A stretch of DNA of 64,000 nt from Endomychus coccineus (Eukaryota; Arthropoda; Insecta; Coleoptera; Endomychidae): NCBI GenBank assembly GCA_958510875.1, contig OY294068.1, positions 200,867,997 to 200,931,996 on the forward strand. Direction: 5' to 3'. A model generated the notes under the pieces. The model worked only from the letters and a program-made list of their open reading frames with translations, ran no database searches and had not been told where the DNA came from. Shown piece by piece: positions 25,033-50,700 of the stretch (position 1 is its first letter; the number at the start of each line of letters is the position of its first letter). The position numbers and the translations under genes were made by a program.

Positions 25033-25956
25033 ATGGCAACACACATCGACCAGCGTGCGAGCGAGAGTGTAACCGAATTTGTAAATGATGAAATCGGTGT
25101 GGGAAAAGATAAAAATTATGGATTTAAAGCAGTATCAAACCCTAATCAATCATCTAGAATTAGAGTAAGCATGATTTTATTCGAAACTGAAGTTTTAAAT
25201 ACCTATTAAACTTACAATTTATTATGTGTTGAAAATCCATAATAAATTATTAAAACGCTATATCATCATTTAATATAAACGTCGCGTCGGTTTGTAGTTT
25301 GTAGAAGAAATACCTGAATCTGTTGTTTTATAACATACGACACTTCATTTAAATTTTTCGTCAATGCTACAGGTTTTGTTAATGAATTTTTTCTTCACAG
25401 AAATACTCCAAGAATTTTAAAAACTCAAATGGGTATGTACTGGTAAGTTCGATAAATTAGCAAAACGAACAAATGTAACCATATTATATTTCAGACTTCC
25501 TCAGAAGATGAATCTGCAAGAACCAGGCATTCGGTAGGTCACATTATATTATTTCTACTGCATGATATGTGATTCAAGTTTATAACATTACTATCATGTG
25601 TGATATTTTTCGCAGGAAACATTGCAAAGCGACGCTCAAGGACTTGACAATGTTACACGAAGACCCATGCGAGAATCCTTCGAACCTCCTACTTTGTTGA
25701 CAGCTCTTCTCACGCAAATCAGCTTTTTCATACTCATGATTTTGGGATTTTTAAGTCAGGCAATATCGCCTCCGAAAATAACAAAAGAAAAATCTCGTGA
25801 AGGTTATCCACCGTTGTTTGATAAATTTTCGGCTTTCTATTCTCGGTACGTGTACCGTAGGGTTAGAGATTGCTGGAATTATCCAATATGTAGTGTCCCT
25901 TCGAATGAAGTTGTTCTGAAAGAAAGGATAACGAACGATAATGGATGGACTTTCGA
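25033..25956 (+). CDS. SPTLC2: Serine palmitoyltransferase 2, exons 1-4
   Basis: First part of the pyridoxal-phosphate subunit of serine palmitoyltransferase, which condenses serine with palmitoyl-CoA in the ER membrane, the first step of sphingolipid synthesis. Exons: 25033-25164, 25401-25442, 25495-25533, 25616-25956; phases 0, 0, 0, 2 close exactly. The start ATG at 25033 is in GGGAATGG context. The small exons 2 and 3 are less certain: exon 2 could end ten bases earlier, but then the frame would break. Exon 4 has the single N-terminal membrane span (TQISFFILMILGFLSQAI) and the family boxes YSRYVYRRVRDCWNYPICSV and DNGWTFE, as in vertebrate SPTLC2. The upstream leader is probably non-coding. 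Confidence 0.92.
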
Positions 25957-27470: not shown

Positions 27471-27559
27471 CTTGACCAAGATAATTTTTAATTTGTAGTT
27501 CATTATTGTTTTACAACTGAACTAAGTAGGTATGAAATTTGTAGGTTATTGATGATGTC

Positions 27560-28603: not shown

Positions 28604-30724
28604 AGTAATTCAATGAACTCCAGCTAAGGGTAATGCCTTATTTGCGTTACTTACTTCGTAAATTATTTAATCAGGCATATTTTGTTTACTCTGATGATGG
28701 TCAATTGGTAGGTGAAACGTTCTCAGAACTCGTAAGAGTACTTTTAGTGGGTAAGGGTAATGATCTGTTACTTATTAGTCTTATAGCATATCTAAGTTGT
28801 AGACTGTTATAGTTTATCAACAATTTAATGTGCAATTATTCAGAATTATCCATAATCACCACTCTCGTAAATAATTTGTTTGGTTTGTGCCAGTCACCGT
28901 AAAATAATCCTTAAAACGATATAACAGTTGCGTAATTCTTCCAATGATAACCGAACACTAACAACTGTCTTAGATATTGAAATAAATTGAAACTATTTTA
29001 CATTGATTGAGATGTTATTAATTTTAATTGTGGAAATGATTCCATATAGATGTTTTCATTGTTTTATATTCAATAATTAGTAAATAGGGCATTTTGCTAA
29101 CTATACAAGCTGTTTCGTGATACTAGAAATTTTTTGACCTACGACCCAAAATTGGAAGTCACTGTCTAGATGACATTTCGAAATACAACTCCCCCCACCT
29201 CAATTTGTCACCCCTTAAAGCAGATAATTACCGATTTTGATGAAATCTTGACCTTCAAAACAAGAGAAAAGTCACTTTCTACATGAGCTTTCGAAATAAC
29301 TACGGATTGCCTCCCACGGTCAATCCCAGAAATTTTAGCTAGTAATACAATGAAGGTAATTGTATCACTCCTTTCAAAAACGTATGTGGTCAATTCGAAT
29401 AAACTTCCAATGTAATGACAATATAATTTATCATCTTCTGTTTCTAATCAACATCTTCGGTTCCTAAGAGTGAGGGAAGGTAAGTGATCAATTGATCACA
29501 GCTTTTTTTATAAAAATGCTAGTGCCTAACCAAGCGATGTTTCCATTCCTATTCCAACTCAAATATGCAAATCATAATTGACATTCTGCTTTATTTCCAC
29601 TCGTAAATTGAATAATCATTGTAAAGGTCGGCATAAATTAACGAAACCTGTTGATTCAAAATGTCTAGTTTTATTCAAATAACATTCAGAACAAACTTCC
29701 GTATGTACCTATGTTTGATAGTTTTCAAGTTATGATGACTTTCTGTTGAATTTGAGGGAAATTCATTTTCGCATAGTTAGCCATGAAAATTAGAAATGTC
29801 TTGATTTTCAAATTCCTTTTTCTGTTATTGTTACGTAGTTTGATAAGAAATTACAAAATCTGGACAGAGGTATTCAAATATATATTTAATGAATTTATTT
29901 TGTATATGGACAATGTAACAAAATGAACCAAACTTGGTTTATTCAACGAGTATCCTCGAATAGATGGAAGTTTTATTTCAATCTACCAGACCTTCAAAAA
30001 AATATGAGAAATTTACTAACAAATTTTCAATAATAAACTATAAAATAGTTATACTAAGTAAGAACTAATCATCCTTATCCACTAAACATACTATTGAAGT
30101 ACTAAGGACCTTTTGGCTGCCAAGTAGCTTTAATCAGAGCAAACAAGGTGTTACACTTAGCTCGGAGTCGGAGAAAAACAGGCTTTTTTGGACCAGGTTT
30201 ATTTGTTTTAAACTATTAAAGTCTAAACATTGTAGAAATTAATAAAACTGTTCAAAAAACAACTGATTCACAAACACAAAAAGTTACATTACAACTTTTT
30301 ATTATTATGCATACATGAACAAATAAGAAACGGTGAAAAAACTTGAATTTGAAACTATTAGTTTATTAGTTAATATTTTACTACTAACTGAATTTAACTT
30401 AACGTAAGAAAAGAAATACTTTATCTTAAAACATTACAAATTCAGTAGGTATAGCCGCTTTAACATTAACAAAAAAATAAAATTGTATTTCATTTCATTC
30501 ATTTGTCTTCGTCATTACAAGAATTATCAAAAATTTCTATTTAGAATTGTTCCAATCCAGATAAATTCAAGAAACGTTCACACCTTAAACTGCAATGATT
30601 TAATTTGCAAATGCAATGCAATTTTTACCGACTGCGGTAACAGCTGATAGGGGAATCCCCTAGAACTGGTAGACGCCCAGCACCACCTATTGATTATTGG
30701 GTACAACTGGTAGACAGAGACGCT
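28604..30724. other. SPTLC2 intron 4, repeat scraps only
   Basis: Short repeat pieces: a CTCTGATGATGGTCAATTGG-like block (28690; relative at 30962), a perfect palindrome TGATCAATTGATCA (29486-29499) within a block that recurs inverted at about 39510, and CATCCTTATCCACTAAACAT (30063) related to the 1073/38160/45815 family. No gene. Confidence 0.4.
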
Positions 30725-30872
30725 GTAACATTTGTTAATGCCTTCTTCCGACTTGAAGTTGGGTTTCGAAAACGCGATGAGTTTCTATATGATTTGTCAA
30801 TTGTTTTGAATGACAATCATGACTTTTCGAAACCTAACTCCAAGCCGGAAAGAAGGCATTAAAGAATGTTAC
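30725..30872. repeat. 148-bp hairpin element in SPTLC2 intron 4
   Basis: Left arm from GTAACATTTGTTAATGCCTT and right arm to AAGGCATTAAAGAATGTTAC are inverted repeats about 50 bp long, with TTCGAAA near the inner ends and about 50 bp of loop. Likely a miniature foldback transposon; as RNA it would make a long hairpin. Confidence 0.65.
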
Positions 30873-31251
30873 TGTATAGGACAGGAAATTTTATGGATTT
30901 TACTCATTATTATCCTCAAATAGTATTTAAATAGGCACATTTCCCTTCATAATTTAGTTTCTTCTGATGATGGACACTTGGTAGCCGAAAGTTCATCTGC
31001 ACTTTAACAGTATTTTCATTTTAATAAGGATTCTTGACCCAGGTTTGAATTATATATAAAATTGTCGGGAAATAGGTCACACTAACACATATGCTTATTA
31101 TTTTCGTCTTTACGTACGTTTCGGTCTCACGACTATCATCAGAAGACGTATAACCGTATAAACGTGATTTCTTGAAACTAATTGTATTTTTAGTCGATTA
31201 TTCATAATTTCAATGATTGCCTGCTAGCAATGTGTCTCGTTCGTTTTCCAG

Positions 31252-31616
31252 ATTCACCGGTTCCAAAATCAAATGTATCAATTTGGCGTCGTACAATTAT
31301 CTGGGCTTCGCCGAAGCGTCCGGTCCTTGTGCCGAATTCGCCATCGAATGTCTTCACAAGTACGGCGTGAGTACGGGAAGTACGCGACAACAATTCGGTA
31401 CGTGCGATCTGCACGTGGAATTGGAGAAACTGTTGGCGGAATATTTGGGTGCCGAAGAGGCCATCACCTGTGGCATGGGTTTCGCCACCAACGCTCTGAA
31501 CATACCGACGCTCGTGACGCCCGGTTGTTTGATCGTAAGCGACGAAAAGAACCACGCTTCGTTGATTTTGGGAATTCGTTTACCGGGAGCTACCGTCAAA
31601 GTTTTTCGACATAACG
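31252..31616 (+). CDS. SPTLC2: Serine palmitoyltransferase 2, exon 5
   Basis: Follows a clear acceptor TCGTTTTCCAG and ends at AACG|GTAAGTG; entry phase 2, exit phase 1. Encodes the glycine- and substrate-binding part of the alpha-oxoamine synthase fold: LASYNYLGFAEASG, the VSTGSTRQQFGTCDLHVELE block, GMGFATNALNIP and SDEKNHASLILG. The NHASL His stacks on the cofactor in this family. Residues match SPTLC2 rather than SPTLC1 or aminolevulinate synthase. Codon use is GC-rich compared with the flanking introns. Confidence 0.96.
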
Positions 31617-34139
31617 GTAAGTGAAGATTTGATTATTTTAATATGCGTTACATGCTTTTTTCCTTTACAAATCAGTTATGAATGGAAATAAAGAAAAATA
31701 ATAGAATTTATATCAAAGTAATAATGAAAATAGGTTTCCTCGCAGCAATATTATCTGAAATCACACTCCTAACCTTAAAATGTCTACAGTTTTACTACTA
31801 AACTAAACCTAGCAATCGAAAAATCGAGTTATCACAAAACCGTGAATAGGTGGAAAATCACTCTTGAGGGTAAATTATTTTGCCCATAATTTAACAATAA
31901 CGAAATTCTTGAGAATAATATTCTGGTAAATATGGAACTTGACATCGAGCATCTTATCATTCAAAAGATATTGAAATATAAATCGGACTAGTATTTTAAG
32001 ATAACAAATATTTCCAATATCAAAAGTAGAAGAATTAAAATAATCATTTTTTTAAATTCAAATCATTGCAAGTAAAATATCCTAATTTCGCAAACTCTTC
32101 TAGAAATTAAGATTGTAATAATATTCATAATTATTAAACCCTCTCCAAAGATTCAAGTATAAAATGGTAAAAATAAATTCAAACTTTAAAATATTGGAAG
32201 TAAATTATTACGTTTAAGTGAAAATCTTAAAATCCAAGATAAGAAATACGTTAAAATTTATATTAACATTTGTTTTGATAATTTAATTAAATAAAATTAC
32301 TTTTTCTCATCAATCTCCAAAATTCATAATTTTTAGAACTATTTATCAGTTTAAATTTTATTTATTATTTTTTCTCATCCCATTAGAATAGGAATAATAT
32401 TAATACCAACATAGCTGCATGAAAAAAAATCAGGAAATCCGGGGAGAAAAATATAATGAAATTTACATCAACATTTGTTTTGATAATCTCAAAAATTAAT
32501 ATTTTTGTTGAACTATTCCCGGTTTATTATAATTTAATTAGTTTCAATTAATTTTATCATTCTTTCTTCATTGTAATAGGAATAATATTATTAATTAACA
32601 TGAATAAATATCAAGAAATCCCAGGAGCAAATATAATAAAATTTATATTTACATTTTTTTCAATAATTTAAATAAAATGTTGATCTTGTGAACAAAAATA
32701 AGAATTTTTTTCAGATCACAGAAAAATTCCTTTTTCGCATTAATCTCCAAAATTAATAATTTTGTTAAACTATTCCCTGTTTATATAATTTTATTAGTTT
32801 CAATTCAATTTCTTCATTGTGATAGGAATAATATTATTAATTAACATGAAAAAATATCACTATCGAAATCCCAGGAGAAAGATATAATAAAATTTATATT
32901 TACATTTGTTTCAATAATTTAAATAAAATGTTAATCTTGTAAACAAAAATAGGAATTTTTTTTTGAGTTCACGGAAAAATTACTCTTTCGAATTAATCTC
33001 TAAAATTAATATTTTTCTGAAATCATTCTCTGTTTATTATAATTTTATTAGTTTCGATTAAATTTACTATTCTTTTTTATCCCATTGCAATAGGAATAAT
33101 ATTATTAATTACAATAATAAATATCACTATCGAAATCAAGAAATCCCAGGAGAAAAACATAATAAAATTTATATTTAAATTTATTTCAATAATTTAAAAA
33201 ATATGTTGATCTTGTAAACAAAAATAAGATTAATTTTTTATTTAAACTTCATAGAAAAATTACTTTTTCGCATTAATCTCTGAAATAATATTTTTGTTAA
33301 ACTATTTTCTGTTTATTATTATTTTATTACTTTCGATTAAATTTATTATTCTTTTTTGTCCCATTGCAATAGGAATGATATTATTAATTACAGTAATAAA
33401 TAACTCTATCGAAATCAAGAAATCCCAGTAGAAAAATATAATAAAATTTATATTTAAATTTGTTTGCATAATTTAAATAAAATGTTGATCCTGTAAACAA
33501 AAAGAAGTTTTTTTTTAACTTCGCATTAATCTCCAAAATTAATATTTTTTTAACTATTTTCTGTTTATTATAATCTTTTATAGTTTCAATTTTCTCATCC
33601 CATTGCAAGAATAATACTATTAATACAAAAATTAAAAAATATCACTATCGAAATGAGTAAAACTCAATTAAAGGATTTATTATCTAAGAACAAAAGGTAT
33701 AGTAGAAAAATAAAATCCTTTTTTTTTACTGTCGATTTTATATATTTTATATATTTTATATTGTACCCAAGTATTGGTACAATTTATCAAGATTTGAACT
33801 CAGAACCGTTTAAAATTTTCATGTTATCTTCTAAATTATTTCGAACTACCTGTTGCCGTATAAAAGGGTTTATTTTTGTATTAATTTTTTCCTCCAAACG
33901 AAAACAATTAATATAAAAGAATGCGATTGCAGTCATGTTTTTTTATTCTGTGATTCTTCGAAGTGAACTTTTAATCCCCGATGAAAGTTTTCCTTAAAAT
34001 TTGATCAAGCAGTGGAAAAAACTTGAGTTCATGCGACATTAGTTTTATTACCTTATTCTTCTATGTGGTAATATGTTAATTTTACATCAGTACAAATGAA
34101 CCCTTTGATTCATTTTATCCCGTTCCCCAATGAATTTAG
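31617..34139. repeat. SPTLC2 intron 5 with degenerate AT-rich tandem repeat
   Basis: 32380-33650 holds about five diverged units of roughly 190-280 bp, each with ATAGGAATAATATTA-type and AATCCCAGGAGAAAAATATA-type landmarks (about 32390/32437, 32578/32618, 32824/32869, 33092/33144, 33371/33421). Units are too diverged for a recent array. No coding sequence is supported; the frame at 33653-33916 has no coding character. Confidence 0.6.
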
Positions 34140-34807
34140 ATGTGAAGCATCTGGAGGAAATTCTCCAGGAGAGCATCATCAAAGGTCAACCCGGTCAGCC
34201 GAAAGGCGAACACAAACCGTGGAAGAAGATCATGATTGTGGTGGAAGGTGTTTACAGTATGGAGGGAACGATAGTCAGATTACCGGAAGTGATAGCCCTC
34301 AAGAAGAAGTACAAAGCGTACTTGTATCTGGACGAGGCGCACAGTATCGGTGCCATGGGCAAACACGGCAAGGGCGTCGTCGACTATTTCGATTGCGATC
34401 CCAAAGACATCGACATCATGATGGGCACCTTCACCAAGAGTTTCGGTTCGTGCGGAGGTTACATCGCGGGATCGAAGGTGAACACAAAAATCCTCCCCAA
34501 AATTCCGTCGTACCTTTTCAATGAAATTTCGTCGTAAATTGCAGGAGCTGGTCGGCTACCTTAGAAAACACAGTTACGCCGCCAAATACGGTTGGGCCAT
34601 GCCGCCGCCGGTCGCCGCTCAGATCATAGCCGTGCTCAAGATACTGATGGGACGCGACGGCACCGACGAAGGTCAGAAACGTATCGAAACGTTGGCGCGG
34701 AACACGCGCTATTTTCGTCAGAGGTTGGAGCAGATCGGCGTGATAATCCACGGTAACGACGATTCGCCCGTCGTGCCAATCATCGTTTATCTCTATTCGA
34801 AAATTGC
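34140..34807 (+). CDS. SPTLC2: Serine palmitoyltransferase 2, exons 6-7
   Basis: Exon 6 is 34140-34477 (acceptor CCAATGAATTTAG, donor AAG|GTGAAC); a 67-bp intron follows; exon 7 is 34545-34807 (acceptor AAATTGCAG, donor TTGC|GTAAGT, exit phase 2). Exon 6 encodes the catalytic core: [24 protein letters not shown] and [15 protein letters not shown], where the Lys in TFTKSFG forms the Schiff base with pyridoxal phosphate. This identifies the catalytic subunit, since SPTLC1 lacks that Lys. Exon 7 carries the [16 protein letters not shown] and [14 protein letters not shown] stretches. The next exon is one of two alternatives. Confidence 0.97.
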
Positions 34808-35179
34808 GTAAGTTGCTTTTTTTATATTAACCATTTCTTCTTCATAAAAGTTTATTCACCTCTCTTTAGCTTCGTACTGGATTTACTGTATAAATACTTT
34901 TAAATCTTCAACAGTGCAAGTTCAGTCTCCCTGATAAAGGAAGGTTGTGCACGCTCTTTTGGGTGATAATTTAAAACATCCTATGGCGCAGTGCAAATAG
35001 TTCGGGGACCAGTAAACACAAATATTTGTTTACAAAATTTAATTTTGATGCGAAACTTAAGTCTTATCAATTTCGGAATGATGTTGTTTTTGCCAGCAAA
35101 CCATCACTTTGGTCAAAGTTGCGCGATATCGTTAAATTCATTTTTTATGTTTTATTTCTAGACGTTTGCGCAATACTAC

Positions 35180-36560
35180 TTTTTACAGATATTCACTCTG
35201 TTTAACTTGTTAACGTTGATACGTCGATAATTAGCAAGTTTCAACCTTTACGAGCGAAAGTAAAGTGTAATGTTTCATTTCAGATTTTTTCGAACATTTA
35301 TTTGATGTTCATCTAACATTTTTGTTGATGTTTGTGCGACATAACTTTATATCGTCAAATTAATGTATGTTTACGAATATTTTAGATATTTTCGGATGAA
35401 TTATTTCATATTATTTTACACTTTTGCGCAATACTACATTTTAAGATTTATTAAACGCCCCATCTTTCAAAATTCAAGCAATAACATTTTTCTAACGAAA
35501 ATCGTCGGTTTTTACAGATATTCCCTCTCATTAACTTATTAACGTTGATACGTCGATAATTAGCGAGTTTCAACCGTTACGAAAGAAAAAATCGTGTAAT
35601 GTTCCATTTCAGATTTTTTCGAACATTTATTTGATGTTCATTTTACATTTTTATTAACGTTTGTGCAACATAACTTTACATCGTCAAATTAATGTATTTT
35701 TACGAACATTTATTTGATGTTCATTTTACATTTTTATTAACGTTTGTGCAACATAACTTTACATCGTCAAATTAATGTATTTTTACGAACATTTATTTGA
35801 TGTTCATTTTACATTTTTATTAACGTTTATGCAACATAACTTTATATCGTCAAATTAATGTATTTTTACGAATATTTTAATATTTTCGGATGATTTATTT
35901 CATATTATTCTACACTTTTGCGCAATACTACATTTTAAGATTTATTAAACGCCCCATCTTTCAAAATTCAACCAATAACATTTTTCAAACGAAAATCGTC
36001 GGTTTTCACAGATATTCGCTCTCATTAACTTATTAACGTTGATACGTCGATAATTAGCAAGTTTCAACCGTTACGAAAGAAAAAATCGTGTAATGTGCCA
36101 TTTCAGATTTTTTCGAACATTTATTTGATGTTCATTTTACATTTTTATTAACGGTTGTGGAACATAACTTTACATCGTCAAATTAATGTATTTTTACGAA
36201 CATTTATTTGATGTTCATTTTACATTTTTATTAACGGTTGTGGAACATAACTTTACATCGTCAAATTAATGTATTTTTACGAACATTTATTTGATGTTCA
36301 TCTAACATTGTTGTTTGTTTGTGCAACATAACTGTATATCGTCAAATTGTTATATTTTTACAAGCCGGTTTTTATGTTTTCGTTACATTTTTCATAGGTT
36401 TGCGCAATATTCTTTTCGCACTATTTTTCAGGATAATACCAGGATTTTTATTCCAACAATAACTCGTTGGTTTTTATTTATTTTTTTCACAGATATTCAA
36501 TCGTTGTTTATCAATGAACGTTGGTGCAGCATTACTTCTTTAATGAACTCAAGATTCAAC
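35180..36560. repeat. Satellite-like tandem repeat in SPTLC2 intron 7
   Basis: Units with ACAGATATTC and TTAACGTTGATACGTCGATA start near 35184, 35516, 36008 and 36491. Within them an 83-bp subunit (TACGAACATTTATTTGATGT and ACATCGTCAAATTAATGTAT) is repeated several times (for example 35701 and 35784), so length differs from unit to unit by whole subunits. No gene; the frames in it are by-products. Confidence 0.8.
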
Positions 36561-36959
36561 CTACACTACAAATCAAAAAATGATACGTTACATTTTTGAT
36601 ATTCTAGCGATGTTGATACAACATTGACAATTAACGCATAAAATTCATCGAGATTCCACCGGCACTACTCACGTTAGTTCAGATTCTTACAAGCATTTAT
36701 TTGACGTTTCTTTCAATTATTTCTAGACGTTTGGGCAACCTTATTGATGTATTATTGCCCAAGATTCAATTGCCAATATTTTCAACAAAGTATATGTCTG
36801 GGTGAGATATTAACTTGCAAATTTGAGAACATTTTGCGAAATATATTTTTATCCCTTTTATATTCATATTCATGTTTATTCTATGTTCATGTTTGGTCAA
36901 TTGTGTGGAGTTTATTCTTATTATTGAAGGTAATTGAGAAGTTGGTAAGACTTTTGTTC

Positions 36960-37145
36960 AATAAATGAATAAATCGAATCGTGGATTAATTAATCAAGAT
37001 TAAATCAAATCCTATTACTGCAACCAGTGGAAATAAATATTATTTAATGAATTTTTAGAAATTTACTTTTCTCGAAACTAAATCTGTTTAATTTGAAGTA
37101 ATTCAGATGTTTCCATGATTTGGGATAACTTTTTCATTCAATTAA
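36960..37145. repeat. Partial copy of the 448-bp repeat
   Basis: Matches part of the tandem repeat at 42381-43725: CGTGGATTA..TTAATCAAGATTAA, ACTGCAACCAGTG and ATTTCCATGATTTGGGATAA in the same order and orientation. Confidence 0.6.
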
Positions 37146-37149
37146 ATTA

Positions 37150-37395
37150 ATAACAATAACAAGCATTCTCTACGCTATTCGCGTTGTTTCCCGTACGGTT
37201 CCTATGCGCTCCTATCTGGCCTCTTGTGTAGAAAAAAGAATCGAGCTCTCGCTCAACTACTGCGGACTGCGGCTCACGCTCTCGATCGGCTTATGCGAAA
37301 GCATAAGCTGATCGTTTCAACAACCTCGGTCACTCCGTCTTAACCCTTCGGGCATATACGCAGCGTACTGACCGATCTAGTAGAATATATTGAAC
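37150..37395. other. GC-rich island with a GAAA-capped hairpin
   Basis: A block of about 245 bp much richer in GC than the surrounding AT-rich intron. At 37283-37314 it forms a 14-bp hairpin (13 Watson-Crick pairs and one G-U) closed by the tetraloop GAAA: CGATCGGCTTATGC-GAAA, then GCATAAGCTGATCG. No frame is coding. It may be a transposon piece or an RNA-structured element; unidentified. Confidence 0.5.
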
Positions 37396-37419
37396 GTGTC
37401 ATGTTCAAAACCATTTAAT

Positions 37420-38120
37420 AAATTTATCAATAAAATTACTTATAAATATTTCAAATAATAATTATAAAAATATACCTTTAAAGTTTCATCTAAAAACGTA
37501 AAAACATTTTACTTAAAAGTTTATTTACTAATAAATGATTAGACATATTTTATTTATTTTAAAATTTAAAATATACTAGTAAATATTAAAGAAATAATTC
37601 TTAAATAAAAAAAATTCAGTAATATTATTTATAAATAAAATTTTAAAATTAAAAATGTTACAAAAAAGCACTTTGAAAATTTCAACAAAAAAAATGCTAA
37701 AAACTGCAATTTCTTCCATTAACAAAACTTTATTATAACAATATTTATTTTTCAAAATTGTTTTACAATACTAATGAAAATAATCAAACTAGTAAATATT
37801 AAAGAAATAATTCTTAAATTAGAAAAAAAATCAGTAAAATTATTTATAAATAAAATTTTAAAATTAAAAATGTTACAAAAAAATGCTGAAAAAGACAATT
37901 TCTTCCTTCAACAAAATTGTATTCATTGAAATAATATTTATTTTTCAAAAGTGTTTTACAATACTAATAAAATGTAATCAAATTGATTTATTCTTAAAAA
38001 TAATAAAAATAAATATATTTCTTTTATGTTTAAATCAAGAAATTTCAAAAACAATTTTTCATAATTTAATAATAAATAATTTATTTATTTATACTTTTTA
38101 TTTAGTTAATTGCTAAAATA
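37420..38120. repeat. AT-rich repeat family, SPTLC2 intron 7 copies
   Basis: Two diverged units (37460-37790, 37790-38110) with AATATTTATTTTTCAAAA, GTTTTACAATACTAAT and AAATATATTTCTTTT landmarks. The same family fills 53270-54890 and 56730-57230 in Gemin5 introns. Confidence 0.6.
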
Positions 38121-38157
38121 AAAATTAATAACAATTATATTACATTATATAATATTT

Positions 38158-38230
38158 TTAGTGGATAAGGGTGATTATTTCTTATTTATAGTGTTATAGT
38201 GTGAACTCTTTTATAATTTAATTGCCGTTT
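38158..38230. repeat. Terminal fragment of a CACCCTTATCCAC-type element
   Basis: TTTAGTGGATAAGGGTGATT followed by ATTTATAGTGTTATAGTGTGAAC matches 45815-45890 and, inverted, 1030-1100. Confidence 0.55.
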
Positions 38231-38824
38231 TTACCAAATTCAATTATTTACCAATCTATATTTTTCTTCATTAATATAAATCATTTTTATTTTCATTATA
38301 AACTTTCATATATTTTATTTCAAATCATTTCTGGGCAGCCGGTGTTAATTTTATTCTCTGATACTTTTATATTGCAAATAATAAATAATGCATTCATGTA
38401 AGTATTAGGTTCATTATTCTACCGAACAAGTTCATTTACTGTGCGAATTCTAAATTGCAATATTTTCATCCATCACACGATATTCGAACTTTCTTATCGC
38501 GTGTGGAAAAGCATCGATCTGAATGATGTAAGTAATGTTTTTCATTCACATTTAATCGAGAATTAATGAGTTGATTGAATTTATTTCCAAATTATTTATA
38601 AAGCTTTATATAACCAATGCCGCCGTTTCTCTTGAATTACATTTAGATCATCACAAAGAAGGATCCTCTCGCCCCTCAAACCAATTTTCATTTAAAAACA
38701 TTCGGCTCTACCAAAAAATTGGCGCGTGGCGCAATACGTCTAAAAAGTTCGACGGTATTTTTTTCGAAATAATCGATTGAATTCAGCAACGAATTGTGTC
38801 ATTCTAACATTTCTTCTTCTTCAG

Positions 38825-39065
38825 GATAATCGTTAGGACTTTGATAAAGAAAAAAATCGCTACGGTGGGTGCGATTTATCCTCTCACCCCCATGTACGAG
38901 GGAAGAATTCGTATCTGTTTATCGGCGGAACTTACCAAACAACAATTGGATTACGCTATGGAAATAATCGACAAAGTAGCCGAAGATTATGGGTTTAAAT
39001 ATTCGAGAAAACCTAAAAATCCTAACGTTATCGATTACGATAAAATCAAAGTTTACCGAGAATAA
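38825..39065 (+). CDS. SPTLC2: Serine palmitoyltransferase 2, alternative terminal exon 8a
   Basis: Acceptor TTCTTCTTCTTCAG, entry phase 2, 241 nt to the TAA. It joins exon 7 in frame (GC|G). Encodes the last 79 residues or so: family-specific MYEGRIRICLSAELTKQQLD, ending KNPNVIDYDKIKVYRE. About 77 percent identical in protein to exon 8b (60 of 78 positions). It differs where the family is conserved: 8b has GYPATP and SAAHTKE, as vertebrate SPTLC2 has GFPATP and SAAHTKE, while 8a has IYPLTP and SAELTKQ. The exon is intact with splice site, frame and stop, so it is either a functional alternative or a very young relic. Poly(A)-type AATAAA occurs near 39370. Confidence 0.9.
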
Positions 39066-39368
39066 GTGGCGAAATTTCGCAGTTATTTTCAATCGAAGCT
39101 CGGGCTTGACCTCCGTCTTTTTCTATAGATAATTGGATATCAGTTTGTTAGGAATCGTCGAAGACATACGCAAATAATATATCATCTAGATTTAACCGGT
39201 AGTTTTCATCAAATCACGTTTTATCCTACAATTTCTCAGGCATTCGTATTTTTAATCAATTGGGCAATGTTACTCATCAGGGTTTACTAACCATCCAAAA
39301 AAAATCATCTAAAGCCCACCGATCGCACACGTTCCGGTGGATCTGACAGACAATTAGTTATTCTAAGT

Positions 39369-39401
39369 AATAAAAAAAAATAATAAACGTATTAAAATTA
39401 C
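39369..39401 (+). terminator. Likely polyadenylation signal for exon 8a transcripts
   Basis: AATAAAAAAAAATAATAAA, containing two AATAAA hexamers, lies about 310 bp after the exon 8a stop. Confidence 0.45.
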
Positions 39402-40096
39402 TACGTGTTTTATTAACTCAAATCAGAAGAAAAATGTCGTGACCTGAAAGTAAGTTTGACGTTGACGGCCTTGGCGTTTCTTGGTCAATACAAAGACAAA
39501 AAAAGCTGTGATCAATTGACCACGTGGCTTCCCTAACTCGTTAATGTTGGTTAGGTTGGATTTGGTTGAATTACTCGACCAATTTCATAATGAACTTAAA
39601 GTAGGTTTAATTTTAAAAGCGTTTTTAACTTTAAATTTATGTTACATTATCTGAGAATTTATTTTATATAAGTTCTTCCGATTCTGAAGATTATAATAAT
39701 GTTTATGTGAAAGAAAATAAAACGTATAGGTAAAGGAAGAACATGAAAATGTATCTCGCTGCATGTTTTGGAAATTCTACTTGCAGAAAAATCAAAAGGG
39801 TAACATGTTATTGCAGCTTTGAGAGACTGTTATATAATAAACTGTTACAAACAAAACTTGAGTTCTTTACTTATCAAACAATTAAATTATTTGTAAATCT
39901 TTAATGTAATTTACAAACAATTGTAGTGTTCACCAACAATTCGAAGAATAAAGTAATTGTATGTAATTATAAGAAATAAGAAAAAAGAACATTGGACATC
40001 CAGTTTCCGGAAGATATACTCTCCGAAGCTGGAACTGAAGAATGATTTTGCTAAAGCAAAATTGTGAAATATGTTTCAGTTCCTTACATATCATGA

Positions 40097-40279
40097 TCAT
40101 TCGAAGTTATGTTTTTGATCACCACCTGGAAGCACAGCATTACGTTTTAGCTGTTTGCGATATGTTTCCACACCACGACACTTATAATCATTATTTGTAA
40201 AGTTATAACTACAAAAACGGTCAGCAGGTTTTGGAATAAAGTTATAACGTTCCCATCTATTTTGTCGTTGTTGCAACAT
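40097..40279 (-). pseudogene. THAP-like zinc finger relic between exons 8a and 8b
   Basis: A 60-codon minus-strand frame reads NRWERYNFIPKPADRFCSYN then FTNNDYK and, after a gap, LKRNAVLPGG. This order (W..., FxP, CS.HF..+DY, LK..AVP) is that of the C-terminal half of a THAP domain, the DNA-binding domain of P-element-type transposases and host THAP proteins. The usual zinc-binding His is Asn. Probably a transposon remnant. Confidence 0.4.
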
Positions 40280-40426
40280 TTCTTAAAGGAACCCTTCTGA
40301 AACTTCAATTAATCACACCGTTACACCACAGAGTAAACATAGAAAATAGAGTGCATCTTCACACTTCAATGACGTCACTTGAATCTTGAATTGAGAATTT
40401 CGAACACTTCTTTAGGTGAAAAACAC

Positions 40427-40906
40427 GTAGTCCAGGCAACGAACCGGAAAATAAAAAAAAAACGTATTTGTCAGAATCGAAATTTTTTGTGGGATTCGAT
40501 CCGTGGGGTTATCAGGACCCCCAGAAGGCTTATTTCGAATTTAAAATACATCAAGTTTTTTTTTTGGGTCGGTGATCATGATTCTGAGACAATTCTAGGG
40601 GTGGAAAATTGGCCATTTTTGCACCTTTATAGATTATTTTGGCAAAATATGTATTATGTTTGGATTTTAAATCCACCAATGGGGTTTTTTGGTTCGCTGA
40701 TCACGATTTTGACGTCAGATTTACTTGGAATCAATTCTCGGGGTGGAAAATCGATCAAATTGGTCAGTTGCGTGACCGGTGAGGTTTTATGAATGATCCT
40801 GATAACCCCACGAATCGAATCCCACAAATATTTTTTTTGTTCTGACCTACATGTCTTTTTTTTATTATAGCTGAAATCCCGGCTCATTGCCTGGACTAAC
40901 GATTGA
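40427..40906. mobile_element. TIR element of about 480 bp
   Basis: Ends AGTCCAGGCAA and TTGCCTGGACT are perfect inverted repeats. Further in, GTGGGATTCGATCCGTGGGG and CCCCACGAATCGAATCCCAC pair as well. Two inner direct repeats (GTGATCATGATTCTGA and CTGATCACGATTTTGA, each followed by a GGGGTGGAAAAT motif) are also visible. No target duplication is clear. Non-coding MITE. Confidence 0.75.
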
Positions 40907-40924
40907 CATTAAGGTTCAATAAAA

Positions 40925-41160
40925 TACTGTAATTCCATTTGAAAAACAAGATGGATGTTAAAAATATCGCTCGAAACGCTACTACCGCAACCAAAAACAA
41001 TATAGTTGATATTTGCAGGAATTTAAAGCGATTACAAATCCATACGACCAATAGGAACGATGCACACACACACAGACATCATGTCAAAAATAGTCTAGAT
41101 CGATTTAGAAACGCTCAAAATTCGGAAATTTTAACATCAATATGTTTTTATGGAGAGCCT
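40925..41160. repeat. Old repeat related to 22920-24166
   Basis: Shares GATGGATGTYAAAAAT, ACACACAGACATCAT and TAGATCGATT with the split copy near 23-24 kb. A 75-codon frame here is not recognised. Confidence 0.5.
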
Positions 41161-41528
41161 AATTGATGGAAAGTGTTACGCGAGAATCGTTACGTGGATC
41201 CGTAACAGGTCTGATTGGTCGAGACCACCAATAGGCTCATCCTTCTCTGATACAAGCTCCGAGCGAGCCCGGAAACAACCGAGCGTAGAGGAGTCTACTG
41301 AGGATCGCGGACCTTGTTCAGAATTATCAATTTATTCTTTTTTTTTGTTAGGAAGAAAGAACATTAAACATGTTCTATGTTATTCGTTTTTATCTAATAA
41401 GAACTGCACATTTTTTTCTGTATTTATTTGTAATCTTAAATATAATTCACAAACTGTTTGAAGAAAAAACGCAACTACATAATTTTTTTAAATACAAAAA
41501 TAAGGTACCTACTTACTGTTATTTCCAG

Positions 41529-41769
41529 GATAATGGTTAGAACTTTGATAGAAAAGAAAATCGCTACCGTGGGTGTTGGCTATCCCGCCACCCCATTATA
41601 CGAGGGAAGAATTCGTATCTGTTTATCGGCAGCACATACCAAAGAACAATTAGATTACGCTCTCGAAGTAATCGACAAAGTAGCCGGCGATAGCGGCCTA
41701 AAACATTCTAGAAGACCTAAAAATCCGAATGTGATCGATTATGATAAAATCAAAGTTTACCAGCAATAA
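41529..41769 (+). CDS. SPTLC2: Serine palmitoyltransferase 2, alternative terminal exon 8b (canonical)
   Basis: Acceptor CTGTTATTTCCAG, entry phase 2, 241 nt to the TAA, exactly the same length and phase as 8a. Encodes IATVGVGYPATPLYEGRIRI and CLSAAHTKEQLD, ending DYDKIKVYQQ; the GYPATP and SAAHTKE boxes and the Arg in RIRICLS are those of the family. With exons 1-7 it gives a protein of 586 residues (vertebrate SPTLC2 is about 560). The 3' flanks of 8a and 8b keep faint similarity, as expected for an old tandem exon duplication. AATAAA follows at about 41931. Confidence 0.95.
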
Positions 41770-41929
41770 GTCACAATGTTGGCGTAAATTTTTTATTGAA
41801 GCTTAAACTTGCACTGCGTATTTTTCCAGTAGATACTTCAATATCACCTTTTTAGGAAGTAACTTGGAACTTTCTCAAACGTCCATTCGGACACACGCAT
41901 TAGTACTTAGATGCCGACTAAGCATTTGA

Positions 41930-41940
41930 AATAAAGTATT
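41930..41940 (+). terminator. Likely polyadenylation signal for exon 8b transcripts
   Basis: GAAATAAAG about 160 bp after the stop at 41769. Confidence 0.5.
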
Positions 41941-42380
41941 TTTTATTTAAATAAATTATTCAGAATCTACACAATTCATATAATAACTTTTAGATGTAGA
42001 TAATCTACCTCGTAAGATTTTAAATATTATATTTGTTTTTGTTCTGAAATATTTATACACTATGTTACTGCTTTTTTTACTTTTTCATTAACCCACATTT
42101 ATAAATGTTGTTATTATATTAAAACGTAACGATTATGTTATTGTCAAATAAATGTGCCTTATTAAGATTATGTAAAATGAGTGAGAAAATATATTAAAGT
42201 TGTTGTTATATTTACGATAAAAGTTCCTCCTCACAATCAAATTGACAGATAAATGGCGAGTAAATTGTGAAATTTTATAATTAAATAATCGCAAAATAAT
42301 TTTTATTTTACTTTAAATAATAATTCAAAATATCCAGAAATAGCAGAAATGCATATAAATGAAACATATCACCATAAAAT

Positions 42381-43725
42381 AATTAATCAGTATTTTTCTT
42401 TTATTTGTTCAAGTATTTAATTTGATCAATACAAGATGATTCAGAATTCAATAATTTTATTGATGAAAAATCGGGGCAATTGATGTATTCAATTTTCCAA
42501 TAATTGATCTATAATTATCAGTATTTTTCTCGTATAAGGATAATTGATCTATAATTAGCAGTATTTTTTTTCCATAAACGGATATTCATATTTTGAGAAA
42601 ATTAACTTATTGAAGGTAATAATTATTGTTCAATAAATAAATCAATTCGTGGATTATTTAATCAAGATTAAATCATATTACTGCAACCAGTGAAAATAAA
42701 TATTCTTTAATGAAACAGTACTTGTATTATAAATATTTTATTTATAGAAATTAATTTTTCTAGAAACTAAACTGATTTGAAATAATTCAGATATTTCCAT
42801 GATTTGGGATAATTTTGTCATTCAATTAATTAATCAGTATTTTTCTTATATTTGTTCAAGTATTTAAATTAGATCAATAAAAGATGATTCAGAATTCAAT
42901 AATTTTATTGATGAAAAATCGGGGCAATTGATGTATTCAATTTTCCAATAATTGATCTATAATTATCAGTATTTTTCTCGTATAAGATAATTGATCTATA
43001 ATTAGCAGTATTTTTTTTTTCCATATAAGGATATTCATATTTTGAGAAAATCAACTTATTGAAGGTAATAATTATTGTTCAATAAATAAATCAATTCGTG
43101 GATTATTTAATCAAGATTAAATCATATTACTGCAACCAGTGAAAATAAATATTCTTTAATGAAACAGTACTTGTATTATAAATATTTTATTTATAGAAAT
43201 TAATTTTTCTAGAAACTAAACTGATTTGAAATAATTCAGATATTTCCATGATTTGGGATAATTTTGTCATTCAATTAATTAATCAGTATTTTTCTTATAT
43301 TTGTTCAAGTATTTAAATTAGATCAATAAAAGATGATTCAGAATTCAATAATTTTATTGATGAAAAATCGGGGCAATTGATATATTCAATTTTCCAATAA
43401 TTGATCTATAATTATCAGTATTTTTCTCGTATAAGATAATTGATCTATAATTCGCAGTATTTTTTTTCCATATAAGGATATTCATATTTTGAGAAAATTA
43501 ACTTATTGAAGGCAAGAATTTTTGTTCAATAAATAAATCAATTCGTGGATTATTTAATCAAGATTAAATCATATTACTGCAACCAGTGAAAATAAATATT
43601 CTTTAATGAAACTGTACTTTTATTATAAATATTTTATTTATAGAAATTAATTTTTCTAGAAACTAAACTGATTTGAAATAATTCAGATATTTCCATGATT
43701 TGGGATAATTTTGTTATTCAATTTA
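42381..43725. repeat. 448-bp tandem repeat, three copies
   Basis: Units start AATTAATCAGTATTTTTCTT at 42381, 42828 and 43277 (periods 447 and 449) and end with ATTTGGGATAATTTTGT. Copies 2 and 3 are nearly identical; copy 1 differs slightly more. Part of the unit also occurs alone at 36960-37145. Confidence 0.95.
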
Positions 43726-45523: not shown

Positions 45524-47659
45524 ATGAACAATTTGATAGTACCACCGTCTCCTAATTGGTTTGAAGTGAAAATCCTAGCATGTGCTTCGGATAATACTGT
45601 GATATACGGGTCTAGACATGATTTAATAATTATTTACCCCACAGCTAAAGATCAGCCTCTTTCGATAAAATTTATAGACAGAGCACATACTCAGAAGTAA
45701 GTACTACCTTGACTTATTAGGCGACATTAAACACTAAAGCACAAGTAAATTCTATAAATAGGGAACAATCACCCTTATCTATTGAAAAGTCCTCAGTACT
45801 TTAATAGTATTTTTAGTGGATAAGGGTGATAATTTTGTATTTATAGTGTTATAGAGTATCCACAGTGTGAACTTTTTTATATTTTATCACATGTAAATTC
45901 CTACTGAACTTCATAATATAGGATGAGGTTTAATTGAACAGCAGAATGAAATTGTATCAGATTGTTAATGAATCCAGTAGATTGTTCTGATTCTTTAGAT
46001 GAAATGAGGGTTTTGATTCTATGATGCATCTTTGATAAAGTTCTATTCACTTTTTTCTAAAAGTAATATGGTTTTTTTTACACATTAAACGTAATTTTCA
46101 ATAGGATTTGTAAAAAAACAATGATAATGGAATTGTTTTGTCTGTTCTTAGAATTACATCGGTTGATGTCAATAATCAATGGGGGCAACCCAATAAATGG
46201 GCAGTAACGTCTGGTGAAGATAAAATTATCAAGGTCTGGGATATCGAAAAAAGAGAAAAGCGACATATGCAAAACGCACATACAGTAAGTTTTTCCAGTT
46301 GATCATTCCTGAAACACATTCTACTTCCTTAATTGTAGGAATCGAAGGATAAAGTCATAGGAGCCAGCTTCCTGAACGAAAATCGAATATTGAGCGTTTC
46401 TGAGAACGGACTATTAGTTCTTTGGGTCCTGTCCACTAATGAAATTACAAAATTGAAGGGCCTTTTTGAGTCTAAAGTATCAATTACTTGTTTCGAACCG
46501 TGCCCTCATGCGTCATATAAAACTGCTTTCGGTTTGAAGAATGGTTTGATCATTGTGGCAGATTTACGAAGTAAGTGTAACTGTGATATGTCGAATTGTT
46601 TGTCTTTATTTTGATTAATTGTACTTTTAAGAAAAAGGGAAGGTTCTCTTCAAACTCAGAGGTCACGATAAAGAGGTTGTTTCGTTATCTTGGTGTCCAG
46701 TTCCAATCAATATATTTCCTTCCAAACCAAACCATTATTTGACTGGGACTGTTCCGATCGAAGCCACCCAAGAATCTCCAAAAACTAAAAAAGTAGAAGT
46801 GATAGAAATCGAAATAAAAGGGATGAGTCCACTTGAGTTTATTCTACAACACGCTAACGAAAATAAGAAACCTAATCCATGGATCAATCTCAAACATGCC
46901 GATGACGATGATCCAGAAGTAACAATAGATCCCCCAGTGATGGAAATGAAAGAATATCAGCACGATTTTCTGTCGGAATGTGAAAATGTGATGAAAAAAA
47001 TCGTTGGCGGCGGCAAATCTGAATTCGACGAAAGGGACGAAGATAACGACGCAACCGCAGAAATTCCAAAAGAAATTGCCGTTGCGAAAGACGACGAAGA
47101 GATTGCTTCATCTGGAATCGGCGCTGAAACGAAAGTTAAAGATAAACAGGTGGAGCAACTCGAGAGGAAAGTCGAAGATGCTGACGCGGAATCGCTTCCA
47201 ACTGTTCCGGTAGATGTTCCCGAGACAGCTCCCCAAGAACCGATTCTCGGGCAGGTTGATCTGAAACCTGAAGAAACCATAGAAGAAAGAAACGCAAACG
47301 TTCTCGCTGAACGGGACAACGTTCCGGTACCGTCAGCTCCCGAAATAGTCGAGGAAGAACCGAGAGACGAATGTCTTCTAGCATCGTCAGCTAAAGACAG
47401 GTAAGTCGTCCGAACGTGCCTTGGATCGATCCGATAGTTGTGTAAACGTTTATTTTTTCAGAAATATATACATCTGGCGGGCCGGCACCGACGGAAGAAT
47501 GCAGACGTTCTTCAACATACCGGACTGGAAAGCGAAATCGAGAAATTATAGAGATAAAAGAGAAATCTGGGTGGTCGTCAATTGGATCGCACCCTTGAAA
47601 TTGATATCTACCAGTAAGAAATGTGAACTTTTGCAATGGATCCTGCCGAAATCTAAGGG
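45524..47659 (+). CDS. Gemin5: Gemin5 (rigor mortis), exons 1-5
   Basis: N-terminal WD-repeat part of the snRNA-binding subunit of the SMN complex, which recognises the Sm site and cap of pre-snRNAs in the cytoplasm. Exons: 45524-45696, 46152-46284, 46339-46570, 46632-47400, 47462-47659; phases 2, 0, 1, 2, 2. The start is fixed by VPPSPNWFEV, like the vertebrate LPPSPNWY N-terminus whose aromatic pair contacts RNA. WD features: SGEDKIIKVWDIEKREKR (exon 2), LVLWVL (exon 3), LRGHDKEVVSLSWCPVP (exon 4), NIYIWRAGTDGRM and CELLQWIL (exon 5). Exon 4 also holds an acidic, low-complexity insertion of about 200 residues between two blades, much longer than the equivalent vertebrate linker. Confidence 0.93.
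45768..45832. repeat. Short foldback relic in Gemin5 intron 1
   Basis: AATCACCCTTATCTA and TAGTGGATAAGGGTGAT are inverted ends about 60 bp apart; the inner TCCTCAGTACTTTAATAGTA is the reverse complement of sequence after the same motif at about 1085. A deleted copy of the family seen at 1073 and 38160. Confidence 0.6.
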
Positions 47660-47726: not shown

Positions 47727-50700
47727 AGTTGCTTTGCTTATTTTTGCATTATTTTGACTTTGAATAGGGTTGCTTTGTTTATTTTTGCATTATTTTGACT
47801 TTGAATAGGGTTGCTTTGTTTATTTTGACTTTGAATAGGGTTGCTTTGTTTATTTTGACTTTGAATAGGGTTGCTTTGCTTATTTTTGCATCATTTTGAC
47901 TTTGAATAGGGTTGCTTTGTTTATTTTAACTTTAAATAGGGTTGCTTTGTTTATTTTTGCATTATTTTGACTTTAAATAGGGTTGCTTTGTTTATTTTGA
48001 CTTTGAATAGGGTTGCTTTGTTTATTTTAACTTTGAATAGGGTTGCTTTGTTTATTTTTGCATTATTTTGACTTTAAATAGGGTTGCTTTGTTTATTTTG
48101 ACTTTGAATAGGGTTGCTTTGTTTATTTTTGCATTATTTTATTTTGAATAGGGTTGCTTTGTTTATTTTTGCATTATTTTGACTTTGAATAGGGTTGCTT
48201 TGTTTATTTTGACTTTGAATAGGGTTGCTTTGTTTATTTTAACTTTGAATAGGGTTGCTTTGTTTATTTTTGCATTATTTTGACTTTAAATAGGGTTGCT
48301 TTGTTTATTTTGACTTTGAATAGGGTTGCTTTGTTTATTTTTGCATTATTTTATTTTGAATAGGGTTGCTTTGTTTATTTTTGCATTATTTTGACTTTGA
48401 ATAGGGTTGCTTTGTTTATTTTGACTTTGAATAGGGTTGCTTTGTTTATTTTAACTTTAAATAGGGTTGCTTTGTTTATTTTTGCATTATTTTGACTTTG
48501 AATAGGGTTGCTTTGTTTATTTTAACTTTGAATAGGGTTGCTTTGTTTATTTTTGCATTATTTTGACTTTAAATAGGGTTGCTTTGTTTATTTTGACTTT
48601 GAATAGGGTTGCTTTGTTTATTTTTGCATTATTTTGACTTTGAATAGGGTTGCTTTGTTTATTTTGACTTTGAATAGGGTTGCTTTGTTTATTTTGACTT
48701 TGAATAGGGTTGCTTTGCTTATTTTTGCATTGTTTTGACTTTAAATAGGGTTGCTTTGTTTATTTTTGCATTATTTTGACTTTGAATAGGGTTGCTTTGT
48801 TTATTTTGACTTTGAATAGGGTTGCTTTGTTTATTTTTGCATTATTTTATTTTGAATAGGGTTGCTTTGTTTATTTTTGCATTATTTTGACTTTGAATAG
48901 GGTTGCTTTGTTTATTTTGACTTTGAATAGGGTTGCTTTGTTTATTTTGACTTTGAATAGGGTTGCTTTGCTTATTTTTGCATCATTTTGACTTTGAATA
49001 GGGTTGCTTTGTTTATTTTAACTTTAAATAGGGTTGCTTTGTTTATTTTTGCATTATTTTGACTTTGAATAGGGTTGCTTTGTTTATTTTAACTTTGAAT
49101 AGGGTTGCTTTGTTTATTTTTGCATTATTTTGACTTTAAATAGGGTTGCTTTGTTTATTTTGACTTTGAATAGGGTTGCTTTGTTTATTTTTGCATTATT
49201 TTATTTTGAATAGGGTTGCTTTGTTTATTTTTGCATTATTTTGACTTTGAATAGGGTTGCTTTGTTTATTTTGACTTTGAATAGGGTTGCTTTGTTTATT
49301 TTGACTTTGAATAGGGTTGCTTTGCTTATTTTTGCATCATTTTGACTTTGAATAGGGTTGCTTTGTTTATTTTAACTTTAAATAGGGTTGCTTTGTTTAT
49401 TTTTGCATTATTTTGACTTTAAATAGGGTTGCTTTGTTTATTTTGACTTTGAATAGGGTTGCTTTGTTTATTTTTGCATTATTTTGACTTTAAATAGGGT
49501 TGCTTTGTTTATTTTTGCATTATTTTGACTTTGAATAGGGTTGCTTTGTTTATTTTAACTTTGAATAGGGTTGCTTTGTTTATTTTTGCATTATTTTGAC
49601 TTTAAATAGGGTTGCTTTGTTTATTTTGACTTTGAATAGGGTTGCTTTGTTTATTTTTGCATTATTTTATTTTGAATAGGGTTGCTTTGTTTATTTTTGC
49701 ATTATTTTGACTTTGAATAGGGTTGCTTTGTTTATTTTGACTTTGAATAGGGTTGCTTTGTTTATTTTGACTTTGAATAGGGTTGCTTTGCTTATTTTTG
49801 CATCATTTTGACTTTGAATAGGGTTGTTTTGTTTATTTTAACTTTAAATAGGGTTGCTTTGTTTATTTTTGCATTATTTTGACTTTAAATAGGGTTGCTT
49901 TGTTTATTTTGACTTTGAATAGGGTTGCTTTGTTTATTTTAACTTTGAATAGGGTTGCTTTGTTTATTTTTGCATTATTTTGACTTTAAATAGGGTTGCT
50001 TTGTTTATTTTGACTTTGAATAGGGTTGCTTTGTTTATTTTTGCATTATTTTATTTTGAATAGGGTTGCTTTGTTTATTTTTGCATTATTTTGACTTTGA
50101 ATAGGGTTGCTTTGTTTATTTTGACTTTGAATAGGGTTGCTTTGTTTATTTTAACTTTGAATAGGGTTGCTTTGTTTATTTTTGCATTATTTTGACTTTA
50201 AATAGGGTTGCTTTGTTTATTTTGACTTTGAATAGGGTTGCTTTGTTTATTTTTGCATTATTTTATTTTGAATAGGGTTGCTTTGTTTATTTTTGCATTA
50301 TTTTGACTTTGAATAGGGTTGCTTTGTTTATTTTGACTTTGAATAGGGTTGCTTTGTTTATTTTGACTTTGAATAGGGTTGCTTTGCTTATTTTTGCATC
50401 ATTTTGACTTTGAATAGGGTTGCTTTGTTTATTTTAACTTTAAATAGGGTTGCTTTGTTTATTTTTGCATTATTTTGACTTTAAATAGGGTTGCTTTGTT
50501 TATTTTGACTTTGAATAGGGTTGCTTTGTTTATTTTAACTTTGAATAGGGTTGCTTTGTTTATTTTTGCATTATTTTGACTTTAAATAGGGTTGCTTTGT
50601 TTATTTTGACTTTGAATAGGGTTGCTTTGTTTATTTTTGCATTATTTTATTTTGAATAGGGTTGCTTTGTTTATTTTTGCATTATTTTGACTTTGAATAG

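What the first reader, a model, noticed from the sequence alone, without database searches (positions are those of the whole stretch)
38825..41769. SPTLC2 has two intact, equal-length alternative terminal exons
Exons 8a and 8b both have good acceptors, the same entry phase, 241 nt to the stop, and 77 percent protein identity. Exon 7 can splice in frame to either, giving two C-termini of the enzyme that makes the sphingoid backbone. SPTLC2 is usually described with one C-terminus in insects. Each exon has its own AATAAA, so choice could be set by polyadenylation. The tandem arrangement could allow tissue-specific change of acyl-CoA choice or of binding of regulators such as ORMDL (the latter is inference).
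Basis: partly seen in the sequence, partly recalled or inferred. Interest (0 to 1): 0.75.

Follow-up and report, generated by a model that had tools for sequence, protein, structure and literature searches.

The report
Duplicated last exon of beetle SPTLC2
In one beetle, the gene for the enzyme that starts sphingolipid synthesis carries two alternative last exons, and one of them has changed otherwise near-unchanging residues around the enzyme's substrate gate, so the gene may make a second version of the enzyme or a blocker of it.

Summary
A complete SPTLC2 gene (25033-41769, +; both products 586 aa) has two 241-nt terminal exons, 8a (38825-39065) and 8b (41529-41769), with the same phase, acceptors and separate AATAAA motifs. 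62 of 80 codons encode the same residue. A search of the own 906-Mb assembly found no third copy. 8b is the standard C-terminus: 0 of 24 near-invariant sites changed against 120 retrieved SPTLC2 proteins. 8a changes 4 of 24, turning PATP (the loop gating the substrate tunnel) into PLTP and SAAHT into SAELT. None of the 125 proteins retrieved has the 8a end; one potato-beetle paralogue shares SAELT, apparently independently. Most amino-acid change fell on 8a. Yet 8a is open, indel-free and spliceable, and simulation disfavours neutral decay throughout. Most likely 8a is a used alternative last exon giving a gate-altered subunit; changed substrate use, changed ceramide feedback or a dominant-negative are inferred, untested. 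A dying duplicate remains a serious rival: no RNA and no other beetle genome could be searched. The gene groups with a ladybird's.

The parts
25033..25164 (+). SPTLC2 exon 1 (start ATG 25033)
   Evidence: N-terminus resembles P0001 and P0031 by eye; donor AGA|GTAAGC; frame kept in the full model
25401..25442 (+). SPTLC2 exon 2
   Evidence: KYSKNFKNSNGYVL, like P0031 by eye; acceptor TTCACAG, donor CTG|GTAAGT
25495..25533 (+). SPTLC2 exon 3
   Evidence: TSSEDESARTRHS, like P0031 by eye; end 25533 keeps the frame, 25534 does not
25616..25956 (+). SPTLC2 exon 4
   Evidence: ORF and splice sites
31252..31616 (+). SPTLC2 exon 5
   Evidence: aligned to solved serine palmitoyltransferase 2 chains; splice sites
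34140..34477 (+). SPTLC2 exon 6 (holds GTFTKSFG; that its K carries PLP is recalled)
34545..34807 (+). SPTLC2 exon 7; donor shared by both ends
   Evidence: donor TGC|GTAAGT
38825..39065 (+). Terminal exon 8a: altered C-terminus (AIYPLTPM, SAELT), stop TAA included
   Evidence: open, in frame, no indel against 8b; changes 4 of 24 near-invariant sites
39369..39387 (+). Two AATAAA motifs after 8a (39369, 39382)
   Evidence: motif match only
41529..41769 (+). Terminal exon 8b: canonical C-terminus (VGYPATPL, SAAHT), stop TAA included
   Evidence: 0 of 24 near-invariant sites changed; in frame
41930..41955 (+). Two AATAAA motifs after 8b (41930, 41950)
   Evidence: motif match only
39066..39155 (+). 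3'UTR stretch of 8a that is homologous to 41770-41859 of 8b
   Evidence: 68.5% identity over 89 aligned nt, 2 gap columns, 0 of 300 shuffles as good

Best explanation
SPTLC2 in this beetle has a tandemly duplicated last exon used as a choice of two 3' ends. If the upstream exon 8a is spliced to exon 7 and polyadenylated at its own site, the subunit ends with 8a; if 8a is skipped, it ends with the canonical 8b. Shown: the anatomy, the frame, no third copy in the own-assembly search, and that 8b is the standard end while 8a has rewritten the substrate-gate region (positions 17, 18, 21 and 24, around PATP) and the SAAHT motif (36, 37). Inferred: that 8a is expressed, and that the 8a subunit pairs with SPTLC1 as a variant with altered amino-acid or acyl-CoA use, or altered ceramide feedback, in some tissue or stage.
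For: Both ends in frame, with acceptors and AATAAA. The 8a acceptor is no weaker to the eye than 8b's (17 against 15 pyrimidines in the 20 nt before AG, my count) and lies upstream; a useless exon there would be expected to steal transcripts (inference). No indel in the 241-nt exon against 2 gap columns in the 90 nt of duplicated 3'UTR. A simulated neutral 8a at 0.2-0.3 substitutions per site per lineage gave no matched run with as few as 18 amino-acid changes (for example 0 of 277), and 94-98% of runs gained a stop; ratios of about 0.3-0.5 fit. 20 of 24 near-invariant sites kept. Changes sit at the PATP gate, and I504F beside it in human SPTLC2 gives deoxysphingolipids. SAELT also occurs in Leptinotarsa P0049, a paralogue whose cluster has 7 members; grouping 8a with it is rejected at p-AU 0.0375, a group I named after seeing the tree.
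Against: No RNA evidence. No 8a end among the proteins retrieved. 8a-lineage changes do not avoid near-invariant sites: 4 of 12 changes at 24 of 80 sites, about the random share of 3.6. A21 and H37 are also fixed in 39 of 39 and 40 of 40 bacterial relatives that cover them, so changing both could simply break the enzyme. At a shorter time (0.15 per lineage) neutrality reaches P 0.09-0.12 on amino-acid count alone.
Confidence: 0.45

Rival explanations
1. 8a is a decaying duplicate: a tandem copy of the last exon that was constrained for a while, has lost constraint, and has not yet met a stop or indel. 8b does all the work.
For: Strong asymmetry: branch 0.29 (8a) against 0.021 (8b) in the exon tree; 12 changes on 8a, 4 on 8b, 2 unclear. 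Deeply conserved A21 and H37 both lost. Changes hit near-invariant sites at about the random share. No relative with the exon found.
Against: Open frame, no indel, intact acceptor and AATAAA motifs; neutral decay for the whole time is disfavoured by simulation; same SAELT pair in an independent paralogue.
Confidence: 0.3
2. 8a makes a catalytically dead or weak SPTLC2 that still binds SPTLC1 and so lowers sphingolipid synthesis: a dominant-negative set by splicing or polyadenylation.
For: PATP-loop and H37 changes are the sort expected to harm catalysis (inference). In yeast, Y110S of Lcb2, thought to destabilise the PATP loop, is dominant negative with lower sphingolipids (PMC10550967, passages). 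Exons 1-7 are shared by both products.
Against: No expression or activity data; 20 of 24 near-invariant sites kept, including the two arginines of GRIRI.
Confidence: 0.17
3. 8a and 8b are functionally equal ends; the choice matters only for the 3'UTR, for example mRNA stability or place.
For: 3'UTRs lose similarity about 90 nt after the stop; both proteins share PKNPNVIDYDKIKVY near the end.
Against: 8a alone changes near-invariant residues at the gate and evolves far faster.
Confidence: 0.08

Closest known systems
SPTLC2 / LCB2 subunit of serine palmitoyltransferase (alpha-oxoamine synthase family)
   Same: 8b-ended product: best hit 82% identical (Tenebrio, exons 4-8b); solved 'serine palmitoyltransferase 2' chain 6m4n_B E 3.8e-149 (exons 5-8b; that it is human is recalled)
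   Different: a second last exon whose PATP is PLTP and SAAHT is SAELT
Leptinotarsa decemlineata SPT2-like P0049 and P0047; Pyrocoelia pectoralis P0050
   Same: extra SPTLC2-like proteins in beetles with changes in the same stretches: P0049 SAELT, P0047 PFTT, P0050 VAVGYPATPM
   Different: separate full-length proteins, not a second last exon; they group with the SPTLC2 of their own species or kin
Alternative last exons made by tandem duplication (class recalled, not searched)
   Same: splice-or-polyadenylate choice between homologous terminal exons
   Different: here in a core lipid enzyme, with the rewritten part at the active-site gate
HSAN1 SPTLC2 mutation I504F
   Same: two residues after human PATP (499-502, my count); position 25 of exon 8, next to the changed position 24; linked to deoxysphingolipids
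   Different: a disease mutation; residue 25 itself is Tyr in both 8a and 8b

Membership tests
SPTLC2 orthologue (8b form) | full-length homology to solved SPTLC2 | tested here: met
   E 3.8e-149 with the exon 5 to 8b product, aligned over residues 1-378 of 393; exons 1-4 were not in the query
SPTLC2 orthologue (8b form) | PATP loop and SAxHT motif | tested here: met
   0 of 24 near-invariant sites changed
SPTLC2 with standard C-terminus (8a form) | PATP loop and SAxHT motif | tested here: not met
   G18I, A21L, H37L, L46M
Alternative last exon | same entry phase, acceptor, own stop and polyadenylation motif for each | tested here: met
Alternative last exon | both junctions used in mRNA | not testable with these tools
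   no RNA reads available; no 8a-ended protein
Alternative last exon | conserved in relatives | tested here: inconclusive
   no 8a end among the proteins retrieved, but the window's own species did not appear among the listed hits either (best identity 82%), and no other beetle genome could be searched
Pseudo-exon / relic | stops, indels or lost splice site | tested here: not met

The most novel reading that the evidence does not exclude
A ladybird-lineage beetle uses last-exon choice to switch serine palmitoyltransferase between sphingolipid synthesis (8b) and a second amino-acid plus acyl-CoA condensation (8a) that feeds fatty-acid-derived defensive amines; ladybird epilachnene is reported, by title only here, to come from oleic acid and serine. 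The same motif change in a potato-beetle paralogue would then mark a recurrent route from SPT to specialised metabolism.
Probability: 0.06. Interest if true: 0.87.

Novelty: new variant of a known kind. Interest (0 to 1): 0.5.

Why it matters
SPTLC2 serves the first step of sphingolipid synthesis, and the PATP alanine and the SAxHT histidine are nearly fixed in the 120 SPTLC2 proteins compared. A gene that keeps the standard end and also offers a rewritten gate by splicing would be a natural test of how this loop sets substrate choice and ceramide feedback, which the papers seen here study with disease mutations and engineered changes. If the 8a form is active on other amino acids, it could be an enzyme candidate for fatty-amine defence chemistry in this group of beetles (speculation).

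Tried and rejected
Assembly duplicate: rejected, 18% nt divergence and unrelated flanks. 8a and 8b as ends of two separate SPTLC2 genes: no third exon-8 match in the 906-Mb assembly and no second copy of exons 4-7 in the window; a genome-wide count of exon 6 could not be made. Shared descent of 8a with Leptinotarsa P0049 through SAELT: rejected, p-AU 0.0375, group named after seeing the tree. Duplication before the split from Henosepilachna and P0001: the best tree puts 8a with 8b (96/87) but the alternative is not rejected (p-AU 0.106 and 0.131), so the age is open. A duplicated exon 4 hinted at near 28349 (RQSFEPPMF): 14 residues, E 1.0, dropped. Clustering of 8a changes near the gate as a formal test: not used, because the regions were chosen after seeing the data; multi-hit codons 10 against 6.3 expected, P 0.03, is suggestive only. 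Rfam: 0 matches at gathering scores in 34500-42500. Genome contigs gave 40 loci, all with bacterial titles; viral contigs gave none. Species name: not found; the 919.1-Mb Halyzia assembly in a search listing does not match 906.4 Mb. Papers: 0 for 'serine palmitoyltransferase' with 'alternative last exon'; of 36 papers I saw the listing of 20, and of 1,513 the listing of 10; no title there is on this. Structure prediction was not tried: by its description the tool takes the window's own translations and fetched proteins, which I took to leave out a spliced product, and it returns no distances.

Full report
OBSERVATION. The window holds a complete SPTLC2 gene on the + strand. I rebuilt it as exons 25033-25164, 25401-25442, 25495-25533, 25616-25956, 31252-31616, 34140-34477 and 34545-34807, then either 38825-39065 (8a) or 41529-41769 (8b). 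Both spliced products are 586 aa, 1761 nt, with one stop at the end (splice sites). The two exons differ at 43 of 241 nt, 11/9/23 by codon position, with no indel; dN is 0.13-0.15 and dS 0.38-0.56 by four methods. The homologous block starts at the acceptor and runs about 90 nt into the 3'UTR. In the own assembly (906,413,582 bases, 129 contigs) a six-frame search with the exon-8b protein had two candidates and two matches, 8b and 8a.

WHAT EACH EXON ENCODES. I aligned both forms with the 120 proteins listed by two database searches. Among the 80 exon-8 positions 24 are the same in at least 97% of the proteins that have a residue there. 8b matches all 24. 8a differs at four: G18I, A21L, H37L and L46M. 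In words, VGYPATPL becomes AIYPLTPM, and SAAHT becomes SAELT. Counts in the 120: G18 116, A21 117, H37 117. Six rows depart at two or more of the 24 sites or lack the region (P0047, P0048, P0049, P0050, P0088, P0100); they were kept in the counts. In 40 bacterial relatives, mostly Parabacteroides and Tannerella kin and so not independent, A21 is fixed in 39 of 39 and H37 in 40 of 40 that cover the site, while position 18 is V, I or L in 37 of 37 and the motif itself is mostly PAVA, not PATP. So G18I is a state seen elsewhere in the family, PATP as a whole is not universal, but A21L and H37L are unusual throughout. By count along the alignment, human PATP is 499-502, H37 is H516, and position 25 is I504 (that the chain is human is recalled).

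WHAT THE CHANGED REGION DOES. From passages read: the PATP loop of Lcb2/SPTLC2 gates the substrate tunnel, and an inhibitory ceramide sits beside it, touching Y485, the residue just before PATP in yeast; the paper calls Y485 conserved only in yeast and Dictyostelium, though both 8a and 8b have Tyr there (PMC10550967). In bacterial SPT the PPATP loop moves in catalysis, R378 just before it binds the serine carboxylate, and the I504F mimic (G385F) lowers efficiency for serine about 5-fold; deoxysphingolipids were very high in cells with I504F (PMC3794620; see also PMC11906848, and PMC4505451). Counting back from G385 = I504, R378 corresponds to position 18, G in 8b and I in 8a. PMC10865984 states that PATP binds the long acyl chain. 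So exon choice would switch the gate. The Orm1 contact that I read about is the amphipathic helix of Lcb2, encoded elsewhere; a second, short-helix contact is named in a legend without its place.

AGE AND SELECTION. In a tree of 43 rows (chosen from 121) the window groups with Henosepilachna, a ladybird (recalled), and two unnamed sequences at 99/96. In an exon-8 tree of 30 rows (chosen from 122) 8a and 8b are sisters at 96/87, with branch 0.29 for 8a and 0.021 for 8b. An older origin is not excluded (p-AU 0.106 and 0.131). Polarised by four relatives, 12 changes fall on 8a, 4 on 8b and 2 are unclear; relative-rate chi-square is 3.8 to 13.0 across eight outgroups. Simulation of a neutral 8a with a constrained 8b gives too many amino-acid changes at 0.2-0.3 per site per lineage (no matched run with 18 or fewer). 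That is the range the duplicated 3'UTR (68.5% identity, about 0.2 per lineage by my Jukes-Cantor arithmetic) and dS suggest. At 0.15 the probability is 0.09-0.12, with a stop in 86-88% of runs. Ratios of about 0.3-0.5 fit. Against this, four of 12 8a changes fall on the 24 near-invariant sites, close to the random share of 3.6, so site by site there is no sign of purifying selection. The fair reading is constraint much weaker than in 8b, but not a lifelong absence of it.

RELATIVES. No protein with the 8a end was retrieved: 29 proteins among 53 candidates in a search scored on the C-terminus, the best 120 listed of 5421 in the whole-protein search, and 5 of 7 candidates in a search for short exon-sized proteins, all five with PATP and the histidine. 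The unlisted rest was not seen. The window's species itself did not appear among the listed hits (best identity 82%), so absence there says nothing about its own transcripts. Two other beetles hold extra SPTLC2-like proteins: Leptinotarsa P0049 has exactly SAELT, P0047 has PFTT, and Pyrocoelia P0050 has VAVGYPATPM. P0049 is the only one of the 120 with E36 or L37. It groups with Leptinotarsa's standard SPTLC2 (100/96), so SAELT most likely arose twice.

MECHANISM. Shown: the choice of two ends is possible on the DNA, and the ends differ at the gate. Inferred: 8a is reached first by the spliceosome, has a good acceptor and its own AATAAA, so some regulation is needed for 8b to be made at all if 8a is live; the 8a subunit then joins SPTLC1 as an enzyme with altered substrate use or feedback, or as a dominant-negative. 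A title in a reference list (Attygalle et al. 1994, seen only as an entry) says that epilachnene comes from oleic acid and serine, which is the kind of condensation this family performs; that it is a ladybird alkaloid is recalled, and linking it to 8a is speculation.

VERDICT. The anatomy is real, and no second example of an 8a-like last exon turned up in the proteins retrieved; the reading of two equal ends is wrong; a role for 8a (enzyme variant, dominant-negative or 3'UTR choice together) is more likely than not but unproven. Interest 0.5.

Noticed in passing
window 47749-51871: Four-kilobase satellite of TTATTTTGACTTTGAATAGGGTTGCTTTGT-like units with extreme strand asymmetry (GC skew 0.44, AT skew -0.50 over 48001-52000), lying between an ORF at 46631-47404 (no Pfam match) and a WD40-type ORF at 52917-53270.
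   Followed up: no
window 52917-53267: Exon-like ORF matching Pfam PF23775 (RIG second beta-propeller; 50.1 bits, under the cut-off of 80), so the neighbour gene may be of the Gemin5/rigor mortis type (type name recalled).
   Followed up: partly
P0047, P0049, P0050: Extra SPTLC2-like proteins in Leptinotarsa and Pyrocoelia with changes in the PATP or SAHT stretches that nearly all other retrieved SPTLC2 proteins keep.
   Followed up: partly
P0088: Sitophilus oryzae SPTLC2 'isoform X2' (448 aa) ends ...ARNTRLAS and lacks the exon-8 region altogether; could be annotation or a truncated isoform.
   Followed up: no
window 27578-28405: ORF in SPTLC2 intron 4 with a weak helicase match (UvrD_C_2, 26.7 against cut-off 27.4), probably a mobile-element helicase remnant (recalled: Helitron/Pif1 type).
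   Followed up: no
window 9722-10297 (-): Reverse transcriptase fragment, PF00078, 33.7 bits against cut-off 29.6.
   Followed up: no
window 32484-33522, 35284-36361, 42380-43723, 2433-4492: Tandem arrays in and around the gene, two of them in SPTLC2 introns (units of 279, 494, 449 and 148 nt); 36944-37151 is 76% like units of the 42380-43723 array.
   Followed up: no
window 38895-38926 and 41599-41630: A 32-nt run identical between 8a and 8b (longest run; place read from the alignment) inside the YEGRIRICLSA stretch, silent sites included; gene conversion or chance.
   Followed up: partly
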